From Sideroxydans sp. (GTDB lineage: Bacteria; Pseudomonadota; Gammaproteobacteria; Burkholderiales; Gallionellaceae): 64,000 nucleotides of DNA. The stretch covers positions 62,001 to 126,000 of the forward strand of contig JAQTUV010000007.1 in NCBI GenBank assembly GCA_028707175.1. Direction: 5' to 3'. A model generated the notes under the pieces. It made no database searches, had not been told where the DNA came from, and saw only the letters and a program-made list of their open reading frames with translations. Below, piece by piece: positions 28,562-35,942 of this stretch. A program made the position numbers and the translations under genes. Position 1 is the stretch's first letter. Each line of letters starts with the position of its first letter.

Positions 28562-29305
28562 TCAAACGGCGATTTGATAGTAGCAAACCGCCCACACCAA
28601 AAGCAATGAATAAAATGACGGAAATGCTTTTACGCCACAACCGAGTGAACGGGCAGCATTCTCAGCCCCCAAACCACACCAAAACCCGTCACTTCCGTAG
28701 CCGCCGCCGAGCCATTCATGTCGGTGTGCATGTTGTACATAAGCTTCCAATGTTGCAAACACCTCCTCCGACACATTCTTGTGTAGGTCGGACTTCAGTC
28801 CGACTTGTCGGGTTGAAACCCGACCTACGACAGCACCAATTCCGTACAGATTGATCTTCTCCAATACCTTACGCTCATCCTTCTTTTTGTTCACGGGCAG
28901 CAAAGCGCCATTCACCCATGCACCATATACAGCCAGCACAGCCGCACGCTGCGCGTTTGGGCCTGACACGACGATGCTCAATGTACTGGTTTGCTCATCC
29001 AACAAGAGTTGCATTGCTTTGCGCACTTGCCTCTGCAATGCAAAGGGCTCAATTTCAAAGTCCAACATCGCCCACGACACCAAGCCACCATTCGTCGTAT
29101 TCGCAGTGACAAAAGCTTTCGCAAACGCATCCACTTTCATGTCGCGGCGCTTGAGCATCGCAACCAGCAAATCGCCGTAGAGAATATCTTTGGGCAACGC
29201 CTTCGATTTGGGCAACAGCACCAGCAGGTGCGTGGCTACCAAGCTTGCAGGCAGGGAGGGGAATAGGGGCAAATGTGCTAGCATTGCCTCCTCAAATTGA
29301 GTCAC
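28562..29305 (-). pseudogene. Truncated M17 leucyl-aminopeptidase-like gene interrupted by a palindromic repeat
   Basis: The first 155 or so residues resemble the N-terminal domain of M17 leucyl aminopeptidases: LVATHLLVLLPKSKALPKD, TTNGGLVSWAMLDFEIEPFA, VYGAWVNGALLPVNKKKDER and KVLEKINLYGIGAV. At that point a palindromic repeat enters in frame and is translated as VVGRVSTRQVGLKSDLHK. The remaining 75 residues show no M17 metal-binding or catalytic motif. The usual length is about 460-500 residues, so the whole peptidase domain is missing. It may still make a protein, but not an aminopeptidase. Confidence 0.7.
28783..28828. repeat. GTAGGTCGG-type palindrome inside a reading frame
   Basis: GTAGGTCGGACTTCAGTCCG followed by TTGTCGGGTTGAAACCCGAC and CTAC. 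It has both half-units like the intergenic copies, but here lies inside the truncated M17 frame at the exact place where family similarity ends. Confidence 0.85.
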
Positions 29306-29333: not shown

Positions 29334-30305
29334 ATGCGCCAATACCTAGACCTAGTTAAAACTGTCCTTGAAATCGGCTCCACTCAAGAGAACCGTACAG
29401 GAATACGAACCATTTCCATTCCGGGCGCCATGATGCGCTTCGACTTGGCTGATGGGTTTCCGGCCATTACCACCAAAAGGCTAGCATTCAAGACCGCCAT
29501 CGGGGAATTGGTCGGCTTTCTACGCGCATATAAAAGCGCCGCAGATTTCCGTGCTCTTGGCAGCAAGGTGTGGGATCAGAATGCCAATGAGAATAAACAG
29601 TGGCTGGAGAATCCCTATCGAATGAAGACTGATGATCTTGGCGAGATATACGGCGTGCAGTGGCGTCAATGGCCCGCATACAAGGTTCTTCAGGCATCCA
29701 ACACTGCGCAGATTAATGATGCACAGCAGCGTGGCTTCAAACTAATCACCCAGTTTACCGAGAACGGGAACGAGCAAGTCTTACTTTACAAGGCGGTTGA
29801 CCAACTACGCCAATGCTTGGATACCATCATTTCAAATCCATCTGACCGCCGGATTATTTTTCACGGATGGAATTGGGCTCAACTTGACCAGATGGCACTT
29901 CCGCCTTGCCATTTGCTGTATCAATTCTTGCCGAATGCGACGACCAAGGAGATTTCTCTTTGTCTCTATATTCGCAGTAACGACTTGGGGCTGGGCGCTC
30001 CGTTCAATATCGCAGAAGGTGCCGCATTACTGTCACTCGTGGGCCGATTAACCGGATACACCCCACGATGGTTCACCTATTTCATCGGCGATGCTCATGT
30101 TTACGAGAACCATCTGGAGATGCTTCAAGAGCAACTAAAGCGAGAGCCATTCCAGAGCCCAAAATTAATCATCTCAGATAGAGTGCCGAGCTTCGCAGAA
30201 ACCGGAAAATACGAACCGGAATGGCTGGAAATAATTGAGCCGACTGACTTTATTTTGGAAGGCTATCAACATCACGCGCCGCTAACTGCGCCCATGGCTG
30301 TTTAA
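29334..30305 (+). CDS. thyA: Thymidylate synthase
   Basis: ThyA methylates dUMP to dTMP with methylene-tetrahydrofolate. The 323-residue protein has R21 in the phosphate loop ([12 protein letters not shown]), the catalytic cysteine C192 in [12 protein letters not shown], and [14 protein letters not shown]. Compared with the 264-residue E. coli enzyme it has an insertion at about 115-155, seen in other proteobacterial forms. It commonly lies near folA; here a four-gene block separates the two. Its base composition by eye (about 42% GC at 29581-29640) is nearer to that block than to folA. Confidence 0.96.
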
Positions 30306-30311
30306 CAAAAA

Positions 30312-31301
30312 TTATTCACTGGCAGTTCTCGACGCAACATACTGAAAAACGCGCGCAGTATTAGCAGGAGACGAATAGCCCTCCTCGTTATATTCAATAG
30401 CCGGGGCATACGCGATTTGAATGCTCTCGTTTTGCATTGAGGCCAGTCCCGCGCCCACTGTAGATAACTTCGTGTTCATAGGGCAAACGACGACATTAAA
30501 ATCATTGTTATCTGTAGCAAGTTTCAATATTGTTTCTTTTGCCTCAAACGGATCAACGCATGAAATATAACAAGTCTCCACCGCAGTTTGAGTGGACTTA
30601 GTTCGTTCAACAAAAGACCACACCTTCTCAAAAAAATGCTTATTCGTCTCAAAGTGCTCCGAGGAAACTGACTTCTTTGGATCACCATAAATGATGGTCA
30701 AACGAGCAGGTTCAAACTGCTCAATTACAGCCGCAACTCTTTCATGCTCAAAGCCGACTATCACAACCAAATGAAGCTTCTTAGATGGCGAAAAACGACC
30801 GGGATAGCCAAGGACTGAGCGTATTTGCCCAACCCCCCTAGTTAGCCAGACATTCTCTTTGTCTGTGTTTGTACTGTACCGTTCTGCGCCGGTATAACCC
30901 ATGAATATTTTGCAGCACGGCTTTAGTAATTCAAAGATCCTTAGCAATATTAATAATTGTTCATGGGTAAATGTGGTTGTATCAACCAACACAGAGCCCG
31001 TAATAGCTGGAAGTAACGGAGCTAAGAACTTTGCAAATGCATCGGCGGTAGAAGTCGGCGTGTTGATATCAAGATCAACAACTGTATTCTTCCCTCGCGA
31101 CATTTCAATCATGCGATTAAGATTTTTGTCAGCTATCGAACCGCAATCTATATTTCTCAACAACAGCACTTGTACTGATTCAAGTTGCAAATTCTCAAGA
31201 ATCGACAGGCATCGATCTTCAAAACTAACCATCCCGATAAATAGCGACACATCATCTGGGAATGGTTTTCCGAAATCACTTAATGGAATTTGCCTAATCA
31301 T
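30312..31301 (-). CDS. Protein with two repeated Rossmann-like halves, CARF-like, last gene of the methylase island
   Basis: I do not recognise this 329-residue protein by name. It contains two similar halves. In the first, SLFIGMVSFEDR (19-30), VQVLLLRN (43-50), SVLVDTTTFTHE (103-114) and KIFMGYTGAERY (131-142). In the second, HLVVIVGFEHER (177-188), LTIIYGDP (201-208), FNVVVCPMNTKL (268-279) and IQIAYAPAIEY (294-304). Each set reads as strands of an alpha/beta fold with a loop motif after the first strand. The NTK loop followed by VGAGLA resembles loops in CARF-type nucleotide-sensing domains, by pattern only. No nuclease, protease, TIR or membrane segment is seen. Its start overlaps the ATPase gene by four bases. 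Confidence 0.7.
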   Translation of the reverse strand: MIRQIPLSDFGKPFPDDVSLFIGMVSFEDRCLSILENLQLESVQVLLLRNIDCGSIADKNLNRMIEMSRGKNTVVDLDINTPTSTADAFAKFLAPLLPAITGSVLVDTTTFTHEQLLILLRIFELLKPCCKIFMGYTGAERYSTNTDKENVWLTRGVGQIRSVLGYPGRFSPSKKLHLVVIVGFEHERVAAVIEQFEPARLTIIYGDPKKSVSSEHFETNKHFFEKVWSFVERTKSTQTAVETCYISCVDPFEAKETILKLATDNNDFNVVVCPMNTKLSTVGAGLASMQNESIQIAYAPAIEYNEEGYSSPANTARVFQYVASRTASE

Positions 31302-33112
31302 GACTGAAACTCCAGTGGCAACTGTGCGTTCTCAATCACATTGCCAAGACGACCACTCTCAAATTCAGCGACCGCCCTACTTGGATTAAGTATCGCAGTT
31401 TGCAACAATTGCGTAGTAACAAATAAATAACCAGAAAACCCCGTTGGATCGAGCTTAAACAAAGGGGCGAGTCTTCTTGTCATCACATAACGGCGCGTTC
31501 GCCAGCGACCATCTTTTGTACCAATGGCAGCCTCGTATAGGTAACCATGCTGCACCCCCAAGTCTAGAATATTCATTATTTCTGTTGGGGGGGAATCTGA
31601 TAATGCAATCGAGAATACTCGCCGCTCTGATCGATTAGAAAGAAGGATTGCTTGGAATATTCCACCTAAGGCTTTAATCAAGTTGCGCAGCTGTCCAAAC
31701 TGCTGCACAGAAGCGCCCAATTGATCTGCCGCCGCATCTTTTTCCAATTTATCCAGCGCGCCAAAAAATAACTTATCTGCACTATCTCTTACAACCTGAT
31801 CCTGAATTGATGGCGATATACGACTCAACCCCACATCACTTTTCGAGCCCGATGAAAGCTTTGATTTCAACTCATCGCCATACATTGTTGCTGCATTGTC
31901 TAGAAAATATCTAATAATTCCAGATGAGATGTGAACGAGTTGATCGTACCCAGCATATGAGTAAGTTCGCATTTGTTTAGCGCCAAGCCCCTTTATGTAA
32001 TCAGGTCTTGCGTATCGATAAGCATCATCGCCCGGACGAAAGCCTTTCCCCTCAACCTCCCAATTCTCAATACGTTTTCTCGCCAGAGCTTGTATTTTTG
32101 TTTCCTGCTCATAATCATTTGGAAAAAATTCTTGCGCCGAAGCTTTTATTGCGCATTGTGCCAATCTCTTGTTTACAACATCCTCGACCCATTTGGGGTA
32201 AGCAGTTTTAGAAGGCTTTCCCGTGTATATGGTCGAAATGTCGACTTCCTTAAAATCGTGCGGCGTTTCAATCCGCTGCTTAGTTGTCGTTCTCCAAGTC
32301 TTATAGCCGCGTTGCGTTGAAATCTTGAATGAAACCTTATTGCCCGTTCTGAAAGAAACCCAGTTATTCAATACTTGAGTTTGCAAAAGGCTCAAGTTAT
32401 CAGCATCGTCGAGAAGCAAATAAACAGGCTTACCCTTAGGCATGCAGTCTAGTTGAGTCAACTCGCATAAAAATGGAAACAGGAAATCTCTATAACCCAC
32501 AAGAGGGCCAGAATATGGAATGTAACTTTCATTTATCCCGATCTTCCTTAGGTAGGAAGTCATCAAACCGTATACATCATCTATTACTCGGATGGATTGC
32601 TTCAGAACCTCTGCAGTCGAGGTCAAATTATCGCTTACTGAGAAATCAGCCCCAACCGACCTAAGCTTATCAAGCAACAAATTCGAGCAAAGTCTTTCTA
32701 TGGCTTTGGGGGCCTCAACGTTATTAAGCGAATCCCCCATATGCTCACGTAACGATTGGAGTACTTTAGATGTAACAAATAATGACAGTGAATGTTCCGC
32801 CAGAACCAAGCCGGCATATTGGTTATTAATTCGGTCGAAGTCTGTCAGATCAAGGTCTGTAGACTTTATGGTTGCATACAGCCCTAAAAATGGCAGATCG
32901 CTTAAAGACTTATTAAGTGAAAGCATCAAACAGTCAGGAGTCATCTGACGCAGCATCATGCTTTTTCCACAACCTCGGTGCCCATGGATAAATAAATGTC
33001 CTGGCGCATCAATCTCAAAATTCTCAGAAAGAGGAACAAATAGCTTGTTTATCTCGTCCGCCCCCATCATCTCAGGGGACGAAACCGCAAATGGATTAAT
33101 ATTCATCACCAT
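31298..33112 (-). CDS. P-loop ATPase of ORC/Cdc6- or STAND-like type, methylase island
   Basis: The 604-residue protein starts with a short segment and a Walker A motif, GHRGCGKS at 44-51, preceded by HLFI. Walker B is PVYLLLDDAD at about 229-238, followed by a sensor-like strand (KVSFKISTQRG). The long helical region between them and the late segment LYEAAIGTKDGRWRTRRYVM, which could be a winged-helix hairpin, recall ORC/Cdc6-type AAA+ ATPases found in predicted conflict systems. No transmembrane segment is seen. Start codons at 33112 or 33106 are both possible; the latter gives a TGATG junction with the HD gene stop. It probably acts as the sensor or switch of the system (inference). Confidence 0.75.
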   Translation of the reverse strand: MVMNINPFAVSSPEMMGADEINKLFVPLSENFEIDAPGHLFIHGHRGCGKSMMLRQMTPDCLMLSLNKSLSDLPFLGLYATIKSTDLDLTDFDRINNQYAGLVLAEHSLSLFVTSKVLQSLREHMGDSLNNVEAPKAIERLCSNLLLDKLRSVGADFSVSDNLTSTAEVLKQSIRVIDDVYGLMTSYLRKIGINESYIPYSGPLVGYRDFLFPFLCELTQLDCMPKGKPVYLLLDDADNLSLLQTQVLNNWVSFRTGNKVSFKISTQRGYKTWRTTTKQRIETPHDFKEVDISTIYTGKPSKTAYPKWVEDVVNKRLAQCAIKASAQEFFPNDYEQETKIQALARKRIENWEVEGKGFRPGDDAYRYARPDYIKGLGAKQMRTYSYAGYDQLVHISSGIIRYFLDNAATMYGDELKSKLSSGSKSDVGLSRISPSIQDQVVRDSADKLFFGALDKLEKDAAADQLGASVQQFGQLRNLIKALGGIFQAILLSNRSERRVFSIALSDSPPTEIMNILDLGVQHGYLYEAAIGTKDGRWRTRRYVMTRRLAPLFKLDPTGFSGYLFVTTQLLQTAILNPSRAVAEFESGRLGNVIENAQLPLEFQS

Positions 33113-34182
33113 GCCTTCCCCGCAAGATTTTCCCCTTTCAATTCAGACATCTCTTCCTTTTCGCGCCAAGCAGATGGAACAGAAGGATATCCCTCATCTT
33201 TAATTGTCAAATCGCGTTGCTCGCAATTTGTGGTGACTTTGGTGCCACTCACATCAATCGTTTTGAAAAATGTCATTTTTATTTCCAAACGATCCGTCTG
33301 CATTGATGGCAAAAGGAATCGGTTACAGTAAACCCGTTCATGATTTAACTTGTTAATTCGATCCCATACATCATCAATCAAATATTTTTCCGTCTGATTG
33401 CCCGCCTCGTCCTCAGGTGTTAAATACTTATGCACAAACAGGGCGGTATCGAAGCTAAATTGAAGCTTGTAAGCCTTGTTGTATCTATCGGGTTTAGCCC
33501 CTGCAATACTTGCTGCGTAATAGTGGAATAGCATATTTACCTCAGGCAAACTTCCCTCACTCACGTGATGCATCGAGGCTCGCGCGCTGTGCTCGCATAT
33601 TTCATCGGCAAACCTTACTAGAGCTGCAACCAACTGGGAACGCACATCAACACCACCACCGACAGTAGTCTCCTCTGGAACAGTCTTTCCAATTGTGTCT
33701 TTGTCATCATCTATAGTGCGCCCACCATGAGCTTGAGCGATAACAGCTATAAGATTTAGCTCAGTAGCATCTAATTGAATCTGGCCACCATACTTCATCA
33801 ATATGGCGGAAGCTTTTTTTTCATGCTCTTCTCGTCCATCAATATTCCCAGCATCATGAACACGAATTGCACAAAGCAGCAAATAAAGTTCATAAGGGCG
33901 TAGTGCAGAATTTTGTTGATTGAACGTATCTTCGATGAGAAGCCCTGCAAACTTAACAACCTCATCGAAGTGACGAGCGCCGTGATCCGTATAAAAGCCA
34001 GGTGATTTAGAAAGGCAAGACAGACCTGCATTTATGTGTGGGTATACATTCAAGTCAAGGTTCGACAATAACGCCGTATACCTATCCCAATAATCAGCAT
34101 GCTGATTAGGGAAGTCATGCTTCATACTACCAGCAAATTCTTTTAATTTTAGTTCTAGCGGAAGCCAATGTCTGCTGCTCAT
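33106..34182 (-). CDS. HD-domain phosphohydrolase, methylase island
   Basis: The 358-residue protein has an intact HD-type metal site: H71 in TDHGARHFDEV, H109-D110 in IRVHDAGN, H152 in AQAHGGR and D193 in RFADEICEHS. The spacing fits HD hydrolases of the kind found beside P-loop ATPases in predicted conflict systems. The last 130 residues form a separate domain ending in hydrophilic sequence. HD enzymes cut nucleotides or phosphodiesters; the substrate is unknown. It begins 21 bases after the methyltransferase stop and overlaps the ATPase gene at its end. Confidence 0.82.
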   Translation of the reverse strand: MSSRHWLPLELKLKEFAGSMKHDFPNQHADYWDRYTALLSNLDLNVYPHINAGLSCLSKSPGFYTDHGARHFDEVVKFAGLLIEDTFNQQNSALRPYELYLLLCAIRVHDAGNIDGREEHEKKASAILMKYGGQIQLDATELNLIAVIAQAHGGRTIDDDKDTIGKTVPEETTVGGGVDVRSQLVAALVRFADEICEHSARASMHHVSEGSLPEVNMLFHYYAASIAGAKPDRYNKAYKLQFSFDTALFVHKYLTPEDEAGNQTEKYLIDDVWDRINKLNHERVYCNRFLLPSMQTDRLEIKMTFFKTIDVSGTKVTTNCEQRDLTIKDEGYPSVPSAWREKEEMSELKGENLAGKAW

Positions 34183-34203
34183 AAATATTCGCTCGTAGTT
34201 TGC

Positions 34204-35259
34204 TTAGTTGCGCCCAGCAATGGTTTGAAATACGGCTTTTGCCAACAACGGCGGAACAAGATTTCCAACCTGCTGTTGTTGAAACCCAATAGAACCCGTG
34301 AATCGGAACCAGTCTGGGATTGATTGCAAGCGAGCTGCTTCCCGAACAGACAACCCCCTGTCTTTCCATGGATGAACCAACATATTCTTCCGGAAATTCC
34401 CAATCACAACCGAAGGCTCATCTTCCTTCAACCTTCTGTAAATACCTGTATGGCATCGCGAAACATCGGTGTAGTTTTTCATCAGCCGTTTGGGAATATC
34501 TTCCCAGTTTCCGCCCTGCGGAATGTGTCCATACCGCTTAACTATATGCGGCGCATTATTGGTAACGACGTTATTTCCACACTTCTCAAGATCGCCGCGC
34601 ATCAGCTTGGCATAAGTAGTTCGAGCGGCTTTAGAATATTCCTCGATATCAGGTGCATCGCCGTTTTCCAATTCCGGCAAATCAGAAATTGCGTCCTTAA
34701 CAGTTCTATATTTTTTTACTGTTGGCTTTGGCTTGTCGATTTCGACACCATGGAGTGAGCCAATAATGAACAAGCGATTTCTTTTTTGAGGTACGCCAAA
34801 ATCAGCCGAGTTCAAAACAAAATGACTGGTGGTATAACCAAGCTCCTTGAATCCATCGAGAACAGCATCCAGAAAAAAACCATTCTCCGTTTCGAGTAAA
34901 CCTTTTACATTTTCAAACACTATCCAATCAGGACGAACTTCACCAACCAAGCGTACATATTCCTTGTACAGCCAGTTGTTGGGATTATCCATATCACGGT
35001 TTTTTTGGTTTGAGGTAGAGAACCCCTGACACGGCGGCCCCCCAAAGATGACTTTTTGTTTTTTCTTAACCAGATTGCGAAACTGCGCTGCAGTCACTTT
35101 CCGAATATCTTGGTTCAGTAGCGTTGTGCTTTTATGGTTAAGCTCAAAGGTTGCCGCAGCATGTTTATCCAACTCAACGGCATAACGGACATCTATGCCA
35201 CTCATAGATGCCCCAACGGACATCCCCCCCGCACCGCTAAATAAATCAATGGCTTGCAT
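34204..35259 (-). CDS. DNA C5-cytosine methyltransferase
   Basis: The 351-residue enzyme has all major C5-methylase motifs in order: I DLFSGAGGMS (5-14), IV GGPPCQGFS (73-81, nucleophile C77), VI ENVKGLL (116-122), VIII QKRNRLF (158-164), IX RGLSVREAARLQSIP and X QVGNLVPPLLAKA. The start at 35259 gives the family start MQAIDLFSG; an upstream frame beginning at 35343 is not supported. The target recognition region lies between motifs VIII and IX and cannot be read. No restriction endonuclease gene is next to it. It is the first gene of the four-gene island, and a hand count at 34861-34920 gives only 21 G/C in 60 bases. Confidence 0.95.
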   Translation of the reverse strand: MQAIDLFSGAGGMSVGASMSGIDVRYAVELDKHAAATFELNHKSTTLLNQDIRKVTAAQFRNLVKKKQKVIFGGPPCQGFSTSNQKNRDMDNPNNWLYKEYVRLVGEVRPDWIVFENVKGLLETENGFFLDAVLDGFKELGYTTSHFVLNSADFGVPQKRNRLFIIGSLHGVEIDKPKPTVKKYRTVKDAISDLPELENGDAPDIEEYSKAARTTYAKLMRGDLEKCGNNVVTNNAPHIVKRYGHIPQGGNWEDIPKRLMKNYTDVSRCHTGIYRRLKEDEPSVVIGNFRKNMLVHPWKDRGLSVREAARLQSIPDWFRFTGSIGFQQQQVGNLVPPLLAKAVFQTIAGRN

Positions 35260-35432: not shown

Positions 35433-35942
35433 ATGTTAAATATATTCAAGCTTTCCATCATCGTCGCCATGGCGCAAAACCGCACCATCGGCATCAACAA
35501 CACACTCCCTTGGCGTTGCCCTGAAGACCTCAAGCATTTCAAGGCACTGACCATGGGGCATCACATGATCATGGGGCGTAAGACTTTCGATTCCATCGGT
35601 AAGCCGCTACCGGGACGCACCACGGTGGTCGTCACGCGTGACAAAGATTTGAAGATCGATGGCTGCATCGTCACTCATTCGTTGCAAGAGGCCATTGCCG
35701 CCTGTGCAGGTGACACCGAGACCTTCATCGTCGGCGGCGCGGATATCTACACCCAGTCGTTGCAACTTGCCGACACGCTCTACATCACCGAGATACAGCA
35801 AGATGTGGAAGGTGATGCACACTTCCCGATTTTCGATAAGCGCGCATGGCAAGAGACCGCTCGCGAAATCCGCTCGCAAGAGACACCGCAACCTTTGCAA
35901 TACCATTTCGTCACGTATCAACGTACCAAGGAGTCAGCATGA
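35433..35942 (+). CDS. folA: Dihydrofolate reductase
   Basis: FolA regenerates tetrahydrofolate consumed as dihydrofolate by ThyA. The 169-residue protein contains LSIIVAMAQNRTIGINNTLP, WRCPEDLKHFK with the catalytic acidic residue, MIMGRKTFDSIGKPLPGR and FIVGGADIYTQSL. GC content is clearly higher than in the adjoining island. Its stop overlaps the next gene's start as ATGA. Confidence 0.97.
   Translation: MLNIFKLSIIVAMAQNRTIGINNTLPWRCPEDLKHFKALTMGHHMIMGRKTFDSIGKPLPGRTTVVVTRDKDLKIDGCIVTHSLQEAIAACAGDTETFIVGGADIYTQSLQLADTLYITEIQQDVEGDAHFPIFDKRAWQETAREIRSQETPQPLQYHFVTYQRTKESA

What the first reader, a model, noticed from the sequence alone, without database searches (positions are those of the whole stretch)
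30312..35259. Four-gene cytosine-methylase / HD / ORC-like ATPase / duplicated Rossmann operon, candidate undescribed defence system
The sequence shows four minus-strand genes that touch or overlap: a complete C5-cytosine methyltransferase, an HD hydrolase with an intact metal site (H71, H109-D110, H152, D193), a P-loop ATPase with Walker A GHRGCGKS and Walker B LLLDDAD, and an unrecognised two-half Rossmann-like protein. Overlaps are 4 bases (ATPase/last gene) and 1-7 bases (HD/ATPase), with a 21-base gap after the methylase. From established knowledge, ATPase-plus-HD pairs occur in predicted bacterial conflict systems, and a methylase often marks self DNA. I infer an anti-phage system in which the ATPase senses unmodified DNA or another trigger, the HD protein acts on nucleotides or nucleic acid, and the last protein senses or transmits a nucleotide signal. 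I cannot match this set to a named system (BREX, DISARM, Druantia, Zorya, Hachiman, CBASS, Thoeris).
Basis: partly seen in the sequence, partly recalled or inferred. Interest (0 to 1): 0.88.

Follow-up and report, generated by a model that had tools for sequence, protein, structure and literature searches.

The report
Four-gene defence operon with thymidylate synthase
A rare but widely scattered bacterial gene set (a DNA-marking enzyme, an HD hydrolase, a DNA-handling ATPase and a nucleotide-sensing CARF protein) looks like an anti-virus system, and it has repeatedly picked up a spare gene for making the DNA letter T, a clue to how it works that can be tested.

Summary
In detail: four touching minus-strand genes at 30312-35259 with the stated motifs. 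The 'unrecognised Rossmann' protein is a tandem-CARF protein (PADLOC CARF6, 3e-70). The ATPase is Pfam ORC-CDC6-like, the HD protein Pfam HD-CE.

The set recurs and moves: 71 of 71 ATPase loci carry CARF; 55 of 65 loci not cut by contig ends carry all four, in many phyla. Neighbours match 106 PADLOC families, controls 4. I found no description of the set in capped listings of the held library.

New here: a thymidylate synthase (ThyA or the unrelated ThyX) adjoins the system in 13 of 71 loci, with at least seven label changes on the ATPase tree, and is an extra copy in 9 of 11 genomes checked. In the window, thyA plus the system replaces the native thyA before folA.

Best reading: methylation-marked immunity with an HD hydrolase effector and a nucleotide-sensing CARF subunit; the recruited synthase points to thymidine nucleotides as target or signal. 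Substrate, ligand and phage protection are untested.

The parts
34204..35259 (-). DNA cytosine-5 methyltransferase (longest ORF runs to 35343; homologs support the start at 35259)
   Evidence: Pfam PF00145 1.5e-65, PADLOC MTase_II 2e-117, alignment A4 with 48-58% identity to four plasmid homologs
33106..34182 (-). HD hydrolase, Pfam HD-CE, with a C-terminal beta-rich region (residues about 226-328)
   Evidence: PF24391 5.1e-23; metal-site residues invariant in 56 of 56 aligned; AlphaFold pLDDT 94.2; weak matches to Ppx/GppA and class I PDE
31298..33112 (-). ORC/CDC6-like P-loop ATPase
   Evidence: PF24389 1.4e-100; Walker A/B conserved in 59 aligned homologs
30312..31301 (-). tandem-CARF protein (CARF6 family), no fused effector domain
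   Evidence: PADLOC PDLC01917 3e-70, 62 of 62 aligned homologs hit it; AlphaFold pLDDT 94.5; Foldseek matches include Cam1, Csm6, Can2, Card1 and the 6sce nuclease
29334..30305 (+). thyA of the PRK13821 type, convergent with the CARF gene (6 b between them); travels with the four genes and replaces the native thyA
   Evidence: NF010393 5.7e-193; 681 bits to the system-linked thyA of L011 against 158-185 bits to the thyA genes of 30 relatives; 70.8% DNA identity with L011 over all five genes; only thymidylate synthase found in the genome
29353..35447 (.). replaced segment: left edge just inside the thyA start, right edge at the folA start, judged against related genomes in which thyA and folA are neighbours
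   Evidence: blastn against L090, L084, L089, L083, L079

Best explanation
This is a mobile, multi-gene anti-invader system that works like a restriction-modification system with an enzymatic, nucleotide-regulated effector. The C5 methylase marks host DNA (inferred from family). The ORC/CDC6-like ATPase binds DNA and senses unmarked or abnormal DNA, as its fold relatives do (inferred). It switches on its partner, the HD phosphohydrolase, the likeliest catalytic effector of the module (inferred; conserved catalytic site shown). The tandem-CARF subunit binds a nucleotide ligand and sets the threshold (fold and invariant residues shown; ligand unknown, and probably not type III CRISPR oligoadenylate, because few of the host genomes searched have a convincing Cas10). 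The effector's action or the sensed signal lies in the deoxynucleotide pool, most likely thymidine nucleotides. For that reason extra thymidylate synthases, either ThyA or the unrelated ThyX, were repeatedly attached to the system to restore dTMP (association shown; reason inferred).
For: Strict linkage: ATPase and CARF in 71 of 71 loci (the loci were found through the ATPase; CARF was not required), gap at most 30 b in 69 of 69 measured; HD-ATPase gap at most 30 b in 62 of 63. All four genes in 55 of the 65 loci that I judged not cut by a contig end, 46 of the 55 in the order MTase-HD-ATPase-CARF on one strand. Pairwise distances co-vary: Spearman 0.68 ATPase-CARF, 0.61 ATPase-HD; less with the methylase, 0.36-0.51. 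Spread over Pseudomonadota, Bacteroidota, Bacillota, Acidobacteriota, Gemmatimonadota, Planctomycetota, Verrucomicrobiota and Thermodesulfobacteriota. Mobility: four plasmids, transposition and recombination genes nearby, no ATPase match in 32 of 33 same-genus genomes, a fragment in one. Defence neighbourhood: 106 PADLOC families at E<=1e-15 among 100 neighbouring proteins, 4 among 100 control proteins. CARF fold; CARF signature start D-X-[ST] in 62 of 62, with R (29) or H (33) at the last signature position, and R30, D107, R188, K278, Y304, N305 invariant. Cas10 convincing in 3 of 50 host genomes, one more borderline. Thymidylate synthase beside the system in 13 of 71 loci (12 within 35 b, L071 a fragment 185 b away), 4-b overlap with the MTase gene in L016 and L051, co-directional ThyX followed by a dCTP-deaminase-like gene in L032, extra copy in 9 of 11 genomes.
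Against: No phage test. 58 of 71 loci show no adjacent thymidylate synthase (some stretches end close to the system), so it is accessory at most. L051 has thyA but no HD gene, which sits badly with TS as an antidote to HD. The best fold matches of HD are Ppx/GppA, then cyclic-nucleotide phosphodiesterases, all at E 0.0029 or worse; dNTPases come at 0.3 or worse. The CARF Foldseek list also holds many other Rossmann proteins, and its first row is a transporter domain. No nucleotide-messenger synthase was recognised in the module. The methylase co-varies least with the rest. In the window thyA is convergent, not co-transcribed, and is an ordinary thymidylate synthase by NCBIfam, so there it could be a hitch-hiker.
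Confidence: 0.45

Rival explanations
1. A restriction-modification variant in which the HD protein is a DNA nuclease guided by the ORC-like ATPase to unmethylated sites; CARF only tunes it. Thymidylate synthase helps repair or re-synthesis after DNA damage.
For: C5 methylase within 4.5 kb in 56 of 71 loci; a gene family that I read as Vsr (very-short-patch repair of 5mC deamination) recurs in 6 loci, one of them annotated vsr; HD nucleases such as Cas3 are known (recalled).
Against: Fold matches are to phosphatases and phosphodiesterases; no row of the 50 shown (of 284) is named as an HD nuclease. The CARF subunit and the repeated choice of thymidylate synthase are not explained.
Confidence: 0.3
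2. The HD protein is a phosphodiesterase that erases the CARF ligand (an off switch), and the toxic or blocking activity lies with the ATPase bound to invader DNA.
For: The best sequence matches, and the second group of fold matches, are class I cyclic-nucleotide phosphodiesterases (weak); L051 keeps MTase, ATPase and CARF without HD.
Against: HD is present in 64 of 71 loci, next to the ATPase gene rather than to CARF; no synthase for a cyclic ligand was recognised in the module.
Confidence: 0.12
3. The thymidylate synthase link is passive: the cassette sits next to thyA or thyX because these genes are recombination hot spots or hitch-hike with it.
For: In the window the package sits exactly at the native thyA site, with its left edge in the conserved thyA start; horizontal transfer of thymidylate genes is a topic of papers in the listing (titles and abstract openings only).
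Against: Two unrelated enzyme families, several arrangements (convergent, co-directional upstream with 4-b overlap, co-directional downstream), extra copies in 9 of 11 genomes; at least seven changes on the tree; a rough expectation of 0.04 such neighbours among 71 loci under stated assumptions.
Confidence: 0.2
4. The operon is not defensive but an epigenetic or replication-control module (methylase plus ORC-like protein) on mobile elements.
For: ORC/CDC6-like ATPase; presence on plasmids.
Against: Defence-rich neighbourhood against control; a CARF6 protein, a family listed in a defence library.
Confidence: 0.07

Closest known systems
CARF6 proteins (PADLOC CARF6--CARF_CARF_CARF; Makarova and co-workers' CARF classification, recalled, paper not held)
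   Same: The last gene is a clear member (3e-70; 62 of 62 aligned homologs).
   Different: At E up to 1 PADLOC has no model for the partner HD protein and only weak ones for the ATPase; no effector is fused to CARF here.
Pfam HD-CE (PF24391) and ORC-CDC6-like (PF24389)
   Same: Both partner proteins score above the curated cut-offs (82.5 and 338.2 bits against 27).
   Different: The names do not describe the four-gene set; among the listed results for HD-CE and ORC-CDC6-like I saw no paper on this set (20 of 91 and 25 of 57 papers listed).
Type III CRISPR CARF effectors (Csm6, Can2, Card1, Cam1 and the nuclease of 6sce)
   Same: CARF fold, by structure comparison.
   Different: No Cas10 in the module; Cas10 convincing in 3 of 50 host genomes; the effector is on a separate chain.
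Clover (HD dNTPase CloA plus nucleotidyltransferase CloB; PMC12265719, abstract opening and four passages seen)
   Same: HD hydrolase in defence acting on the nucleotide pool, with nucleotide control signals (analogy).
   Different: No nucleotidyltransferase recognised here; extra methylase, ORC-like ATPase and CARF; HD fold not closest to dNTPases.
[not shown]
   Same: Mza-type genes recur beside the system in 8 loci, where a C5 methylase can lie with the Mza-type genes and may be shared (assignment per locus inferred).
   Different: No Mza core gene belongs to the four-gene set.
Type II restriction-modification
   Same: C5 methylase of the MTase_II group.
   Different: No recognised restriction endonuclease in the set.

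Membership tests
Type II restriction-modification | cytosine or adenine DNA methylase | tested here: met
   PF00145, dcm TIGR00675, PADLOC MTase_II
Type II restriction-modification | cognate restriction endonuclease gene | tested here: not met
   none of the other three proteins hits a restriction nuclease family
CARF superfamily (CARF6) | CARF fold and CARF6 profile | tested here: met
CARF superfamily (CARF6) | signature [DN]X[ST]XXX[RK] (PMC4012209, passage seen) | tested here: inconclusive
   D-X-[ST] in 62 of 62; last position R in 29, H in 33 including the window
CARF superfamily (CARF6) | binds a cyclic or linear oligonucleotide | not testable with these tools
   needs biochemistry
Type III CRISPR signalling | Cas10 cyclase in the locus or genome | tested here: not met
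   3 of 50 genomes convincing (57 bits or more), one at 35 bits; other hits, some just over the cut-off and including the window genome at 28 bits, are read as related GGDEF cyclases, and the E. coli control also rings
CBASS | CD-NTase in the operon | tested here: not met
   no such family among the four genes
HD dNTPase systems (Clover, dGTPase defence) | HD fold with intact metal site | tested here: met
HD dNTPase systems (Clover, dGTPase defence) | close fold relation to dNTPases | tested here: not met
   best matches Ppx/GppA; dNTPases at E 0.3 or worse
HD dNTPase systems (Clover, dGTPase defence) | dNTP hydrolysis | not testable with these tools
   needs an enzyme assay
[not shown]
   none of the four genes; such genes stand beside the system in 8 other loci
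BREX, DISARM, Druantia, MADS | system core genes other than the methylase | tested here: not met
   only the methylase hits DruM/DrmMII models; ATPase against mad8 E 0.022

The most novel reading that the evidence does not exclude
A thymidylate-linked immune system: on sensing unmethylated invader DNA, the ORC-like ATPase and HD hydrolase drain thymidine nucleotides under control of a tandem-CARF sensor that reads a thymidine or other non-CRISPR nucleotide signal, and hosts have repeatedly added a spare thymidylate synthase (ThyA or ThyX) as an activity-level antidote or reset.
Probability: 0.25. Interest if true: 0.87.

Novelty: new variant of a known kind. Interest (0 to 1): 0.66.

Why it matters
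It joins a DNA methylase, an ORC/CDC6-like ATPase, an HD hydrolase and a CARF sensor into one mobile system that occurs mostly without type III CRISPR in the genomes searched, so it asks directly what CARF proteins sense outside CRISPR. The repeated recruitment of two unrelated thymidylate synthases is an unusual genomic clue to biochemical function: it suggests that the activity (dTMP supply), not a given protein, matters to cells that carry the system. That turns an anonymous operon into a testable hypothesis about thymidine nucleotides in phage defence.

Tried and rejected
Viral contigs with the window ATPase: 6 pattern matches, no relative (single-protein query, so close relatives only). 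Phage records: one N-terminal match (131 residues) in an unannotated 7-kb record. PDB by sequence for the three alignments: weak HD hits to class I phosphodiesterases and exopolyphosphatase; the CARF-profile hits to SAKe designs (E down to 6.7e-8) cover 15-18 residues with no stretch passing on its own and were discarded; the ATPase gave only P-loop matches at E 0.37 or worse. PADLOC hits of the ATPase (CARF_STK_AAA 0.0017, mad8 0.022) were rejected as P-loop cross-matches. The NCBIfam Sll1717 match is below cut-off. Cas10 hits under 30 bits were read as GGDEF cross-matches because E. coli rings in the control. HD 'absences' in L020 (a remnant) and L061 (odd junction beside a weak type I specificity match) were not taken as true variants; L051 was. 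A ribonucleotide reductase neighbour in L031 occurs once in the sample and was not used. Two likely sources are not held; the eLife 2020 conflict-systems paper (PMC7159879) had no passage for my terms beyond a reference, and the BREX paper (PMC12839542) gave passages on ORC/Cdc6-type ATPases of BREX and BREX-related systems, with CARF only in a reference.
Full report
Observation. The window holds four touching minus-strand genes between thyA (29334-30305, +) and folA (35433-35942, +): a tandem Rossmann protein (30312-31301), a P-loop ATPase (31298-33112), an HD protein (33106-34182) and a C5-cytosine methylase (34204 to 35259, or to 35343 as the longest ORF). G+C is 0.43-0.47 in the 2-kb blocks that hold the genes, 0.50 and 0.54 in the blocks on either side.

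Identity of the parts. Pfam gives ORC-CDC6-like (PF24389, 1.4e-100) for the ATPase, HD-CE (PF24391, 5.1e-23) for the HD protein and C5 DNA methylase (1.5e-65) for the methylase; the last gene hits HFX_2341_N just under its cut-off. PADLOC names the last gene CARF6 (3e-70) and the methylase MTase_II; at E up to 1 it has nothing for HD and only weak cross-matches for the ATPase. All 62 homologs of the last gene that I aligned (window plus 61 of 65 genome-contig loci) hit the same CARF6 profile.

Structures. AlphaFold models built on the session's alignments have mean pLDDT 94.2 (HD, 56 sequences) and 94.5 (CARF, 62 sequences). Foldseek gives the CARF model 36 matches at E<=0.001; they include Cam1, Csm6, Can2, Card1 and the cyclic-oligoadenylate nuclease 6sce (TM by query 0.52), but also other Rossmann proteins such as enoyl reductases and KaiC, and the first row is a transporter domain. 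The CARF assignment therefore rests on the profile and the fold together. The signature start D-X-[ST] is present in 62 of 62, with R (29) or H (33) at its last position; R30, D107, R188, K278, Y304 and N305 are invariant. The HD model has no match at E<=0.001; the best are Ppx/GppA phosphatases (0.0029 and worse), then class I phosphodiesterases, with dNTPases at 0.3 or worse. So the HD substrate is not settled by fold.

Recurrence. tblastn in 72,556 plasmid records found the ATPase in 4 and the CARF protein in the same 4, each with methylase, HD, ATPase and CARF in the same order: Rhizobium, Yoonia, Agrobacterium and Spirosoma, the last across the record start. A scan of genome contigs with two peptide patterns of the ATPase gave 111 candidate stretches, of which 65 were confirmed as relatives. 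With HMMs from the first five systems, 71 of 71 loci (those 65, the four plasmids, the window, and a fragment in a same-genus genome) carry ATPase and CARF, 64 HD, and 56 a methylase within 4.5 kb. I judged six loci cut by contig ends (L010, L013, L027, L052, L057, L071); of the other 65, 55 have all four, 46 of those 55 in the window's order on one strand. L040 and L049 come from one MAG and are near-copies. The ATPase tree mixes phyla, as expected of horizontal transfer. Distances between proteins co-vary at 0.68 (ATPase-CARF), 0.61 (ATPase-HD) and 0.48 (CARF-HD), and at 0.36 to 0.51 with the methylase, which also moves or is missing most often. In an even draw of 398 genomes of the window's phylum, 3 have the ATPase, the own genome included; of 33 same-genus relatives one has a fragment and 32 have no match, some of them incomplete genomes.

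Defence context. I took 127 neighbouring proteins, cut them to 107 by a length cap (so loci L011-L066 only), and removed 7 thymidylate synthases, leaving 100. Controls were 114 proteins cut to 107 and then 100, from 36 of 40 stretches in 40 host genomes, placed by me mostly on contigs known to hold a thyA or thyX gene, not drawn at random. At E<=1e-15 the neighbours hit 106 PADLOC families, the controls 4. The tool counts families, and several models can hit one protein; the commonest family has 3 members, so this is a contrast of kinds, not a rate. Families shown include MzaB/C/E, mad2/mad3, type I RM, AbiE, AbiU and PDC candidates; two of the four control families are mad2 and mad3. Pfam shows TniQ, TnsA-like, resolvase and transposase genes, and also housekeeping genes. 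A family that I read as Vsr recurs in 6 loci, with one vsr annotation.

The thymidylate synthase link. In 13 of 71 loci a thymidylate synthase gene lies beside the system, 12 of them within 35 b. ThyX: L003, L005, L064, L067, L068 (convergent, at the end of CARF), L029, L030 (convergent, after a methylase that lies behind CARF), L032 (same strand, after CARF, followed by a gene that hits the Pfam dCTP-deaminase-like family above its cut-off and NCBIfam dCTP deaminase below its cut-off). ThyA: the window and L011 (convergent), L016 and L051 (same strand, 4-b overlap with the methylase start), L071 (a 105-residue fragment, 185 b away). ThyA and ThyX are different Pfam families and unrelated enzymes (the latter recalled). 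The tree needs at least seven changes of the label, gains or losses, three for ThyX and four for ThyA (a quick tree without bootstraps). In the 50 genomes searched (16 of the 65 loci, and the hosts of the four plasmids, were not), the linked gene is an extra copy in 9 of 11; the exceptions are the window genome, where it is the only one, and L071, a MAG (the linked copy was told from the others by its contig position). Assuming 4,200 genes and 1.15 synthase genes per genome (my figures), 0.04 direct neighbours would be expected in 71 loci; this ignores kinship, which the tree count addresses.

The window's history. Of 18 same-genus thyA loci fetched (about 3.8 kb each), 12 show a gene like 28562-29305, a native-type thyA and folA in a row, and one more shows thyA with folA. 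In the window the native thyA is gone and a 323-residue thyA of another subfamily (NF010393) plus the four genes stand in its place; similarity to L090 stops at 29353, just inside the thyA start, and resumes at 35454, at the start of folA. The whole five-gene unit is 70.8% identical in DNA to L011, a Betaproteobacterium MAG in which a native-type thyA survives elsewhere. So the synthase and the system moved together.

Mechanism. Shown: linkage, conserved catalytic and P-loop residues, CARF profile and fold, defence neighbourhood, thymidylate synthase association. Inferred: methylase marks self; the ATPase senses DNA; HD is the effector; CARF sets the threshold with a nucleotide ligand. That ligand is probably not type III CRISPR oligoadenylate in most hosts, because Cas10 is convincing in 3 of 50 genomes, with one more borderline. 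That unrelated synthases were chosen suggests the activity is what counts; the simplest reason is drain or sensing of thymidine nucleotides. Clover is a precedent for an HD dNTPase in defence with nucleotide control (PMC12265719, abstract opening and four passages). A thymidylate synthase is named among domains newly validated in defence (PMC13092281, section 5 and a legend passage); nothing in what I read ties it to this system.

Against this reading. Most loci show no synthase; L051 has it without HD; the HD fold does not favour dNTPases; nothing was tested on phage. The window pair alone could be hitch-hiking.

Prior description. Searches for HD-CE, ORC-CDC6, CARF6, PF24389 and PF24391, and for CARF with HD domain, methylase and ORC terms, showed no description of this four-gene set in the papers listed (three of these lists were cut, at 20 of 91, 20 of 46 and 25 of 57 papers). 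I saw listings, and passages of a few papers, not whole texts. Two likely sources are not held, so prior mention cannot be excluded.

Noticed in passing
L010:113-3333 (same-genus genome G003): A 3.3-kb contig of a same-genus genome carries the end of a divergent ATPase and a full CARF gene of the system beside a protein with a Fic-like HPFRDGNGR motif (motif recalled).
   Followed up: partly
L039, L040, L042, L044, L049, L054, L069, L073: In eight mostly Bacteroidota loci (L040 and L049 from one MAG) the system lies beside Mza-like genes, and a C5 methylase often lies with those genes, as if the two systems shared one methylase.
   Followed up: partly
L018, L026, L031, L033, L052, L064: Two gene families that look like transposition genes (TniQ in L026; TnsA-like and integrase domains among the neighbours scanned) recur near the system, suggesting carriage by Tn7-like transposons in some hosts.
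   Followed up: partly
L032:11877-15126: ThyX is followed on the same strand by a dCTP-deaminase-like gene and two unknown ORFs, a possible pyrimidine-nucleotide extension of the system.
   Followed up: partly
L031:9007-10329: A ribonucleotide reductase small-subunit gene stands next to the system in Acinetobacter piscicola; not checked whether it is native.
   Followed up: no
L051:6306-7100: An unknown protein with apparent membrane-spanning stretches precedes thyA in the locus that lacks the HD gene.
   Followed up: no
L014:6639-8986: The HD gene is interrupted by a transposase-like ORF; L020 has only an HD remnant: decaying copies exist.
   Followed up: partly
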